Shown piece by piece: positions 991 through 59,525 of a stretch of 64,000 nt of DNA. Position numbers and translations under genes: made by a program. Location of the stretch: the NCBI GenBank assembly GCA_036378175.1, contig DASUWY010000033.1:1-64000 (forward strand), read 5' to 3'. This stretch comes from Thermoleophilaceae bacterium (GTDB lineage Bacteria; Actinomycetota; Thermoleophilia; Solirubrobacterales; Thermoleophilaceae). Positions within the stretch are counted from its first letter, which is position 1; each line of letters starts with the position of its first letter. Under the pieces are notes generated by a model. The model was not told the origin of the DNA, ran no database searches, and saw only the letters and a list, made by a program, of their open reading frames with translations.

Positions 991-1977
991 ATGGACCTCG
1001 ACGTGCTCTTCGTCGGCACCGCGGGCTCGGCGCCCACCGCCCGCCGCGGGCTGCCCGCCACGCTCGTGCGCCGCGGCGGCGACCGGCTGCTCTTCGACTG
1101 CGGCGAGGGCACGCAGCGGCAGCTGCTGCGCTCCGTAGGGCTGCTCGAGCTCGAGGAGATCTTCATCAGCCACTTCCACGCGGACCACTTCCTCGGCCTG
1201 CCCGGCCTGCTCAAGACGTTCGGCCTGCGCGGCCGCGAGCAGCCGCTCTCGATCTACGGCCCGCCCGGCCTGCGCGCCATGTACCACGCGCTCTATCCGG
1301 TGATGGGGAAGACGGGCTTCGAGGTGCAGATCGTGGAGCTCGAGCCCAACGAGGAGCTGCGGCGCGACGGCTACCTGGTGGCCGCGTTCCAGGTCGACCA
1401 CCGGGTGGCGGCCTACGGCTACGCGCTGATCGAAGACGAGCGCCCCGGCCGCTTCGACGAGCGGCGAGCGCGCGAGCTCGGCATTCAGCCGGGACCGGAC
1501 TTCGGGCGGCTCCAGCGGGGCGAGCAGGTGGGGGAGGTGCGCCCCGAGCACGTGCTTGGCGAGGCGCGCGCCGGGCGCAAGGTGGTGATCGCGGGCGACA
1601 CGGCTCCGTGCCACATGACCGAGCTCGTGTCCCACGGCGCCGACCTCCTGGTGCACGAGGCCACCTTCTCGATGGAGGAAGCCGCCCGCGCACGGGAGAC
1701 CGGACACTCCACGGCGCGCGGCGCGGCGGAGCTGGCAGCGAAGGCGGAGGTGAAGCTGCTCGCGCTCACCCACATCTCCCAGCGCTACGGGGGCAAGGAG
1801 CTGCGGGACGAGGCGCGGCAGGTGTTCGAGAACACGATCGTGCCGAGGGATTTTGATCGCGTCGAGGTTCCTTTCCCCGAGCGCGGTGAGCCGGTGCATC
1901 TCCGCTGGCAGGACGAGGTGGCAGGTCGCAAGTCGCAGGTCGCAGGCACCGTTGACAATAGAGAAAGTGAGTGCTAA
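991..1977 (+). CDS. rnz: Ribonuclease Z
   Basis: A metallo-beta-lactamase-fold tRNA 3'-processing endonuclease of 328 residues, close to the usual short-form length. The signature HFHADH is at 61-66. Downstream are the conserved GDT (in VVIAGDTAPC) and HEATF motifs and a C-terminal LTHIS segment. RNase Z cuts tRNA precursors after the discriminator base, which matters where CCA is not encoded, as in the nearby tRNA-Arg. GGAG lies just upstream of the ATG. The last codons contain a heptamer repeat cluster (1921-1948), and the stop codon overlaps the promoter of the following tetR gene. Confidence 0.93.
   Translation: MDLDVLFVGTAGSAPTARRGLPATLVRRGGDRLLFDCGEGTQRQLLRSVGLLELEEIFISHFHADHFLGLPGLLKTFGLRGREQPLSIYGPPGLRAMYHALYPVMGKTGFEVQIVELEPNEELRRDGYLVAAFQVDHRVAAYGYALIEDERPGRFDERRARELGIQPGPDFGRLQRGEQVGEVRPEHVLGEARAGRKVVIAGDTAPCHMTELVSHGADLLVHEATFSMEEAARARETGHSTARGAAELAAKAEVKLLALTHISQRYGGKELRDEARQVFENTIVPRDFDRVEVPFPERGEPVHLRWQDEVAGRKSQVAGTVDNRESEC
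1921..1948. repeat. Heptamer tandem repeat cluster 1
   Basis: Four consecutive 7-base units, GCAGGTC, GCAAGTC, GCAGGTC and GCAGGCA, fall in the last codons of rnz. The period is exactly seven, so the repeat is not a codon-level (multiple of three) repeat even though it is translated. It is one of seven such clusters in the window. Confidence 0.8.
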
Positions 1978-58272: not shown

Positions 58273-58295
58273 AAGCTCGTCATCACCGAACGGTT

Positions 58296-58347
58296 CGCGT
58301 CCGTGACGAGGTTGTCACAAACCCGTCACAAACTTGTCACGGACGCG
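58296..58347. repeat. 12-bp inverted repeat enclosing three 11-bp direct repeats, upstream of recA
   Basis: Perfect arms CGCGTCCGTGAC (58296-58307) and GTCACGGACGCG (58336-58347) flank the 11-mers TTGTCACAAAC, CCGTCACAAAC and TTGTCACGGAC (58312-58344), the last overlapping the right arm. The core GTCAC(A/G)(A/G)AC thus occurs three times forward at one-helical-turn spacing and once inverted. A -10-like TACCGT (58354-58359) follows. This is a probable protein-binding array for recA control. It does not match the LexA box or the known PafBC promoter spacing. Confidence 0.75.
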
Positions 58348-58412
58348 TGTGGATACCGTCCGATCCGACCCGTACCTTGGTGTTCATCTCGAAGACTGCG
58401 AGGAGCACCGAC

Positions 58413-59525
58413 ATGGATACGGACAAGGATCAGGAAAAGGCGGCGAAGGCCCGCGATTCGGCGCTGAACAGCGCACTCACTCAGATCGAGCGCCAGTTCG
58501 GCAAGGGCTCGATCATGCGCATGGGCGACGAGGAGGCGGCCGTCAAGGTGTCCGCCATTCCGTCCGGGGCCCTGTCGCTCGACCTCGCGCTGGGCGTGGG
58601 AGGCTTCCCGCGCGGGCGCATCGTGGAGATCTTCGGCCCGGAGTCATCGGGCAAGACCACGCTCATCTACCACGTGCTGGCGCAGGCCCAGAAGCAGGGC
58701 GGCATCTGCGCGTTCGTGGACGCAGAGCACGCGATGGATCCGGCTTACGCCAAGCGGATCGGCGTGGATGTGGACGAGCTGCTCGTCTCGCAGCCGGACC
58801 ACGGTGAGCAGGCGCTCGAGATCGCCGACCTCCTGATCCGCTCAGGCGCGATCGACGTCGTGGCGATCGACTCGGTGGCGGCCCTCACGCCGAAGGCCGA
58901 GCTCGAGGGCGCGATGGGCGACCAGACGGTGGGCCTCCAGGCGCGCATGATGAGCCAGGCGATGCGCAAGCTGGCCGGCAACCTCAACCGCACCGGCACG
59001 CTCTGCATGTTCACCAACCAGATCCGCGAGAAGGTCGGCGTGATGTTCGGCTCGCCGGAGACGCAGCCGGGCGGTCGCGCGCTCAAGTTCTACTCGTCGC
59101 AGCGGCTCGACATCCGCCGCATCGAGACGCTCAAGGAGGGCGTCGAGGCGGTCGGCAACCGCGTGCGGGTGAAGGTCGTGAAGAACAAGGTGGCGGCGCC
59201 GTTCCGCCAGGCCGAGTTCGACATCGAATACGGCATGGGCATCTCCGCGGAGGGCTGCCTGCTCGACCTCGGGCTCGAGCACGACATCGTGCAGAAGTCC
59301 GGCTCGTTCTTCTCGTACGGCGACACCCGTCTCGGCCAGGGCCGCAACAACGCCAAGGCCTTCCTGCGCGAGAACCCCGAGATGGCGAAGGAGATCGAGA
59401 CGAAGATCTACGACGCCGTGGGGATCACGCCGGCGCACCCCGGCGCAAACGTCGCGGAGCTCGATCCGAACGCGTCGAAGGAAGCAGCAGAGGAAGCGGT
59501 AGCAGCCGCCGCCGAGGCGGCCTAG
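58413..59525 (+). CDS. recA: Recombinase RecA
   Basis: A 370-residue recombinase that forms filaments on single-stranded DNA. Visible are [11 protein letters not shown], Walker [18 protein letters not shown], Walker [11 protein letters not shown], the L1/L2 DNA loops (about [20 protein letters not shown] and [15 protein letters not shown]) and the glutamine-type L2 region. The acidic tail is replaced by an Ala/Glu-rich end. The ATG is fixed by GAGGAG upstream. No recX follows, unlike many Actinobacteria. Confidence 0.97.

What the first reader, a model, noticed from the sequence alone, without database searches (positions are those of the whole stretch)
58296..58347. Iterated 11-bp repeats inside a perfect inverted repeat upstream of recA
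Three copies of GTCAC(A/G)(A/G)AC at 11-bp steps (one helical turn) plus one inverted copy, enclosed by perfect 12-bp arms, sit directly before a TACCGT -10 candidate for recA. The actinobacterial LexA box (CGAAC-N4-GTTCG) is absent; only CGAAC-G-GTTCG occurs at 58287-58297. The PafBC-type promoter element needs different bases and spacing. This may be a lineage-specific DNA-damage operator.
Basis: partly seen in the sequence, partly recalled or inferred. Interest (0 to 1): 0.65.

Follow-up and report, generated by a model that had tools for sequence, protein, structure and literature searches.

The report
Competence-gene operator before recA
The repeats in front of this soil bacterium's recA gene are a real control site that its relatives also carry before their DNA-uptake (natural transformation) genes, so they probably switch recA on for taking up DNA rather than being a DNA-damage switch, and they give a handle on how competence is controlled in this branch of Actinobacteria, which is unknown.

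Summary
The array is real: GTCAC boxes at exact 11-bp steps (58303, 58314, 58325, 58336). The same boxes occur at 11/22/33-bp steps before recA in 8 of 15 Thermoleophilaceae genera sampled; coding controls and other families are at chance. The perfect inverted arms are not conserved: the one same-genus relative lacks the left arm. Its spacing is that of the PafBC (RecA-NDp) damage promoter; it also precedes xseA, rmuC and the gene before a fused pafBC. So recA has a damage promoter, and the array is something else. Genome-wide, the boxes recur before natural-transformation genes: comEA, and the divergent comM-dprA / yraN region. A promoter rule built from them (GTNRC-N15-GTNRC-N11-TASSNT) hit 12 places in 10 genomes (about 31 Mb), all at comEA, comM or yraN. 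A stricter form in 399 class genomes hit 9 such places, all in this family, plus 2 identical hits elsewhere. Best reading: a lineage-specific competence operator with recA as an optional member, bound by an unidentified activator, possibly OmpR/SARP-type (geometry only). The protein, binding and induction are inferred, not shown.

The parts
58303..58307 (+). Box 1, GTGAC (the inverted copy; 11 bp before box 2)
   Evidence: in the same-genus relative the letters are TGGAC, so this box is not kept there
58314..58318 (+). Box 2, GTCAC (GTTAC in G067)
58325..58329 (+). Box 3, GTCAC
58336..58340 (+). Box 4, GTCAC (GTCGC in G067); 22 bp upstream of GTCCG, 37 bp upstream of the -10
   Evidence: the 21-22 bp distance to GTCCG recurs in 11 family members
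58296..58347 (.). Inverted repeat: 12-bp perfect outer arms 58296-58307 / 58336-58347, 23-bp arms at 87% overall
   Evidence: absent in G067: judged incidental or species-specific
58287..58297 (.). CGAACGGTTCG, short palindrome; not a LexA box (1-bp instead of 4-bp centre)
   Evidence: not kept in G067
58356..58362 (+). CCGTCCG, PafBC-type -26 promoter element of recA
   Evidence: GTCCG-N10-TA in 27 of 30 family members; 8 places genome-wide, 3 of them at DNA-repair-type genes besides recA
58373..58378 (+). TACCTT, conserved -10 of recA (start of transcription near 58385, inferred)
58400..58405 (+). GAGGAG, ribosome-binding site of recA
   Evidence: Read from the sequence; conserved in position in relatives
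58413..59525 (+). recA, ATG start, 370 aa
   Evidence: TIGR02012 RecA, E 1.9e-162; N-terminus aligned with relatives

Best explanation
The array is an operator of a natural-competence (transformation) regulon of Thermoleophilaceae. A protein recognises GTNRC boxes (mostly GTNAC) set in phase on the DNA helix. At the core genes (comEA; comM-dprA; yraN) the boxes are built into the promoter as GTNAC-N4-GTNAC-N6-GTNRC-N11-TASSKT, the last box at about -28 to -24, in place of a -35 element, so bound protein probably recruits RNA polymerase there. At recA the same boxes, in tandem 11-bp steps, lie two helical turns further upstream (about -82 to -45) in front of a separate PafBC-type damage promoter, so recA would be driven by DNA damage through PafBC and raised further when the competence regulon is on. 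recA is an optional member: about half the genera have the array, the rest keep only the PafBC-type promoter. Shown: the boxes, spacing, conservation, the sharing with com genes and its specificity. Inferred: that a protein binds, that it activates, that the state is competence. Guessed: that the protein is an OmpR/SARP-type winged-helix activator.
For: Box-pair spacing before recA in 30 family members: d=11 seen 20 times against 0.52 in dinucleotide shuffles, d=22 13 against 0.50; without the own genus 15 against 0.38; one per genus d=11 4 against 0.16 and d=22 6 against 0.21; coding stretches of the same genes 0; other families of the order 1 against 1.18. comM upstreams: d=11 34 against 1.2, d=20 23 against 1.1; comEA: d=11 11 against 0.7, d=20 12 against 0.7. 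Last box to -10: N11 in 14 of 27 comM and 10 of 18 comEA promoters, hardly any other spacing. Own genome, GTNRC x3 at 11-bp steps: recA, both strands of the comM/yraN gap, comEA, a Flp-type prepilin gene, one AbiEi-like gene, the rest in coding DNA; G067: recA, comM/yraN, comEA and two others. Rule GTNRC-N15-GTNRC-N11-TASSNT in 10 family genomes: 12 hits, reversed control 2, all 12 at comEA, comM or yraN. Strict 3-box rule in 399 class genomes: 9 hits, all in this family and at these genes, plus one identical sequence in two other genomes. Gene identities: comM YifB, comEA SLBB+HhH, DprA, ComEC, YraN UPF0102.
Against: No binding, expression or transformation data. The rule was derived from the same promoters it was then tested on; what is independent is the absence of hits elsewhere in the genomes. 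recA does not fit the com promoter rule (0 of 30 have box-N11-TA): its array is upstream, pure 11-bp steps without the 9-bp step, so sharing of one protein rests on box sequence and 11-bp step. Half the genera lack the array at recA. The com promoter is imperfect in several genomes, and comEC and dprA are only covered by neighbourhood. No regulator gene was found next to the com genes. Natural transformation is not reported for this family.
Confidence: 0.68

Rival explanations
1. The array is a lineage-specific DNA-damage operator, with comM, dprA, yraN and comEA being damage-induced together with recA.
For: recA, comM, dprA and yraN can all be read as recombination or DNA-processing genes; the array lies in phase with the PafBC-type element.
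Against: comEA (DNA uptake) is one of the best-conserved members. The repair-type genes with the PafBC-type promoter (xseA, rmuC, the YhaM-like gene) show no array in the stretches read. Genera without the array keep the PafBC-type promoter.
Confidence: 0.14
2. The array is the box of a widespread global response regulator of the OmpR/PhoB class (PhoP, RegX3, MtrA, GlnR), tying recA and com genes to phosphate, nitrogen or envelope stress.
For: 11-bp tandem TCAC-type repeats are typical of this class; MtrA's reported core is GTCACAgcg (PMC2945938); in this genome 11-bp TTCAC repeats stand before a pstS-like gene and GTCAT repeats before an OmpR-type regulator gene.
Against: A global regulator's box should occur before many genes; the com rule hits only com genes in 10 genomes. 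The 9-bp (N4) step in com promoters is not usual for the class. The pstS and regulator repeats differ in sequence (TTCAC, GTCAT).
Confidence: 0.12
3. The boxes are read by a WYL-type activator (PafBC itself or a paralogue) or by a CRP/FNR-type dimer, rather than an OmpR/SARP-type protein; same biology, other protein.
For: Last com box is 16 bp before the -10, PafBC's GTCCG 15 bp before it; PafBC binds a -26 motif by sigma adaptation (PMC11804915). GTNAC-N4-GTNAC at com promoters is a palindrome like CRP-class sites.
Against: PafBC elements and com boxes differ (GTCCG against GTNRC, N10 against N11) and both stand before recA. The recA array has no N4 palindrome, only N6 steps.
Confidence: 0.2
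4. The inverted repeat is the functional part: a terminator or RNA hairpin of the upstream gene, or a cruciform.
For: Strong predicted hairpin, -34 kcal/mol, z -4.05; it lies 24 bp after the stop of the upstream open frame.
Against: No T-run, no terminator-like site found; the hairpin is lost in the same-genus relative (z -0.84, no inverted repeat) while the direct repeats are kept.
Confidence: 0.03

Closest known systems
PafBC / RecA-NDp damage promoters of Actinobacteria
   Same: CCGTCCG-N10-TACCTT before recA, at the spacing recalled for RecA-NDp; fused PafB-PafC protein in the genome, best hit 6sj9 PafBC
   Different: This is the neighbour of the array, not the array. Bases differ from the mycobacterial TGTCRGTG. 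In mycobacteria recA also has an SOS box (PMC8223512); here no perfect LexA box is present
SARP promoters (AfsR, afs box)
   Same: Direct repeats at 11 or 22 bp, sited at -40 to -19 in place of a -35 (PMC10936776); com boxes 2 and 3 fall there
   Different: Extra 9-bp step at com promoters; at recA the array is further upstream; box sequence differs; no SARP gene tested
OmpR/PhoB-class response-regulator boxes (PHO box, MtrA GTCACAgcg, GlnR)
   Same: Tandem TCAC-type repeats in 11-bp steps
   Different: Target genes here are com genes and recA; specificity is narrow; 9-bp step
Known competence boxes: ComX/sigX CIN box, ComK box, CRP-S sites (from memory except sigX, noted in PMC8467076)
   Same: A shared element coordinates DNA-uptake and recombination genes (recA also in some)
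   Different: Different sequence and layout; no such element or its regulator is described for Actinobacteria in the papers found; competence control there is called little known (PMC12849477)
Micrococcus luteus competence (comEA-comEC, Flp pili)
   Same: ComEA/ComEC; Flp prepilins required for transformation (PMC4322843); here a prepilin gene with a G/XXXXEY site has a box array upstream
   Different: No box or regulator is named there; M. luteus promoters could not be compared here

Membership tests
LexA/SOS box (actinobacterial) | CGAAC-N4-GTTCG near the promoter | tested here: not met
   No perfect match in the window; in 30 family recA upstreams 1 strict match; other families 5 of 48 strict, 17 of 48 loose
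PafBC (RecA-NDp) promoter [element 58356-58378] | GTC-core -26 element about 15 bp before a TA...T -10, no -35 | tested here: met
   Position and conservation. The consensus itself is recalled; its letters were not in the papers held
PafBC (RecA-NDp) promoter [element 58356-58378] | PafBC regulator in the genome | tested here: met
   HTH_PafC 32.9 bits, just over cut-off; phmmer 6sj9 E 1.5e-27 over the whole fused protein
PafBC (RecA-NDp) promoter [element 58356-58378] | Damage induction through PafBC | not testable with these tools
   Needs expression data
SARP-type promoter | Direct repeats at 11 or 22 bp | tested here: met
SARP-type promoter | 3' repeat about 8 bp from the -10 | tested here: inconclusive
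   com promoters: GTNRC-N11-TA, compatible if the repeat is taken as an 11-nt unit at -29 to -19. recA: not met, last box 37 bp before the -10
SARP-type promoter | A SARP (OmpR-type wHTH plus BTA domain) binds it | not tested
OmpR/PhoB response-regulator box | Tandem repeats at 11 bp | tested here: met
   recA array
OmpR/PhoB response-regulator box | A response regulator binds it | not testable with these tools
   Needs binding assay
Competence regulon element | Shared by several transformation genes and few others | tested here: met
   12 of 12 hits in 10 genomes at comEA, comM, yraN; recA array shares box and 11-bp step, not the full rule
Competence regulon element | Controls transformation genes in vivo | not testable with these tools
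   No expression data

The most novel reading that the evidence does not exclude
Thermoleophilaceae have a dedicated competence regulon with its own promoter class (GTNAC-N4-GTNAC-N6-GTNRC-N11-TASSKT) and a so far unknown activator, which also takes in recA (upstream array beside a PafBC damage promoter) and the uncharacterised gene yraN: the first competence cis-element described for Actinobacteria.
Probability: 0.55. Interest if true: 0.8.

Novelty: new variant of a known kind. Interest (0 to 1): 0.66.

Why it matters
How competence is switched on in Actinobacteria is an open question (PMC12849477, PMC8467076). A short, highly specific promoter element shared by comEA, comM-dprA and yraN, and by recA in half the genera, gives bait for finding the regulator, a way to predict competence regulons in uncultured soil Actinobacteria, and a hint that yraN (UPF0102) belongs to transformation. 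It also separates two controls on recA that look like one on the page: a damage promoter and a competence array.

Tried and rejected
Inverted repeat as the operator: rejected, not conserved. Terminator: rejected. TACCGT as -10: rejected outside the genus. LexA operator: not met in the window. Plain GTCAC triple with 3 mismatches genome-wide: too loose, 100 matches against 53 for the reversed control. A regulator next to the com genes: none seen in 20-kb neighbourhoods, read without a profile search. Array before pilin and AbiEi-like genes as regulon members: left open, each seen in one genome only. Literature on competence in Thermoleophilia: none found. The papers held do not print the RecA-NDp letters. 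comM promoters of other families were not fetched, so the absence of the com rule outside the family rests on the strict pattern alone.

Full report
What is there. Between the stop of the upstream open frame (58272) and recA (ATG 58413) lie four boxes at exact 11-bp steps: GTGAC 58303, GTCAC 58314, GTCAC 58325, GTCAC 58336. The triple GTCAC-N6-GTCAC-N6-GTCAC with up to two mismatches matches three times in the window, all here; shuffles give 0.13. In the whole 4.29-Mb genome this is the only perfect place. The perfect 12-bp arms are real too. The genome belongs to Thermoleophilaceae, order Solirubrobacterales, as judged from named near relatives.

What relatives keep. recA was located in 147 of 151 genomes of the order and upstream DNA was read for 78. 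The same-genus relative keeps the three direct boxes (GTTAC, GTCAC, GTCGC, same steps) and loses the left arm and the inverted box, and with them the hairpin. In the family, GTNRC pairs at 11 bp occur 20 times against 0.52 in shuffles and at 22 bp 13 against 0.50; without the own genus 15 and 10 against 0.4. Eight of 15 genera have a pair at 11, 22 or 33 bp. Coding stretches of the same genes show none, and the other families of the order are at chance. So the direct, helically phased repeats are under selection; the inverted repeat is not.

The recA promoter itself. Every nearby relative shares another element: GTCCG-N10-TA...(T/G), in 27 of 30 family members. Here it is CCGTCCG 58356-58362 and TACCTT 58373-58378. 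The spacing is that recalled for the RecA-NDp motif of PafBC, whose regulator binds a -26 element and adapts sigma (PMC11804915). The genome encodes a fused PafB-PafC protein (HTH_PafC at cut-off; whole-length phmmer match to the PafBC structure 6sj9, E 1.5e-27). CCGTCCG-N10-TANNNT occurs 8 times in the genome: recA, xseA, rmuC, a YhaM-like gene directly before pafBC, and four others. The reversed control gives 7, so the pattern alone is not significant; the company of genes is what counts. The last array box is 21-22 bp before GTCCG in 11 members of 7 genera, i.e. two turns.

Where else the boxes occur. GTNRC three times at 11-bp steps: 16 matches in the own genome against 6 for the reversed pattern. 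The intergenic ones are recA; the divergent gap between comM-dprA and yraN, with one array on each strand; the comEA promoter; a 75-aa prepilin gene with the Flp-type site G/QGTVEY; and an AbiEi-like gene. In the same-genus genome the matches include recA, comM/yraN and comEA. Upstreams of comM (27 genomes) and comEA (18) in the family are full of the boxes, at 9, 11, 20 and 31 bp. They align as GTNAC-N4-GTNAC-N6-GTNRC-N11-TASSKT, for comM, yraN and comEA alike; the N11 distance stands alone among 5-19. Transcripts of comM would begin at or near the start codon.

Specificity. GTNRC-N15-GTNRC-N11-TASSNT in ten family genomes: 12 matches, reversed control 2, every one directly before comEA, comM or yraN, at constant distance. 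The strict three-box rule in 399 genomes of the class: 9 matches in 6 genomes of this family, all at these genes, and one identical sequence in two genomes of another family with no com gene nearby. The rule came from these promoters, so their presence among hits is expected; the absence of hits elsewhere is the informative part.

Reading. ComEA takes up DNA, DprA loads RecA on incoming strands, ComM migrates branches and RecA pairs the strands (established knowledge). One shared element before these genes is what a competence regulon looks like. recA is an optional member: genera g2, g5, g6, g8, g14 and g16 have no array at recA, and several of them (g5, g6, g14) have excellent com promoters. 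The recA array does not follow the full com rule, so that one protein reads both is inferred from box and step. The com boxes lie at about -39 to -24, the place of SARP repeats (PMC10936776); this and the 11-bp step point to an OmpR/SARP-type winged helix, but the 9-bp step does not, and a WYL or CRP-type protein is possible. No regulator gene was identified.

Novelty. Competence regulons with shared boxes are a known kind. This box, its promoter layout and its presence in Actinobacteria are not in the papers found; reviews and recent work call actinobacterial competence control little known (PMC12849477, PMC8467076). Only open-licence papers could be searched.

Noticed in passing
L126 1950-2080 (G000:C18:70109-70242): yraN (UPF0102, function unknown) shares the com promoter with comM-dprA in divergent orientation in several genera; suggests a role in transformation.
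   Followed up: partly
L148 about 1501-1800, minus strand (G000:C66:16118): 75-aa Flp-type prepilin gene (G/QGTVEY) with a GTCAC/GTAGC/GTTGC array upstream, beside a GGDEF-EAL gene; no Tad genes adjacent.
   Followed up: partly
L145 / L321 10100-10160 (G000:C51:110121-110158): Four boxes at 11-bp steps before an AbiEi-like gene, with the same AAACCC spacer as at recA; not seen in the same-genus genome.
   Followed up: partly
recA hits of G018, G022, G033, G039, G054, G004: RecA matches stop at residue 214 inside open frames of 730-890 aa: probable inteins at one site.
   Followed up: no
G149:C185:15027-16082 and G056:C106:8871-9809: A second, diverged recA (67% identity) in two genomes of other families.
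   Followed up: no
L128 1980-2120 (G000:C48:24980-25122): TTCAC repeats at 11-bp steps before a pstS-like gene: looks like a classic PHO box.
   Followed up: no
L129 1882-1919 (G000:C40:55281-55318): GTCAT repeats at 11-bp steps before an OmpR-type response-regulator gene, likely its own box.
   Followed up: partly
recA upstreams L005, L008, L012, L015, L019, L050, L057, L065, L071: Genera without the array have GGGGCGAA 3-5 bp before the PafBC-type GTCCG instead; unexplained.
   Followed up: no
recA upstreams of other families, e.g. L044, L045, L056, L092: LexA-like CGAAC-N4-GTTC overlaps the PafBC-type element (17 of 48 by a loose pattern).
   Followed up: partly
L136 near 1500 (G000:C37:19546): PafBC-type promoter followed at once by CGAACACATGTTC, a LexA-like box; gene not identified.
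   Followed up: no
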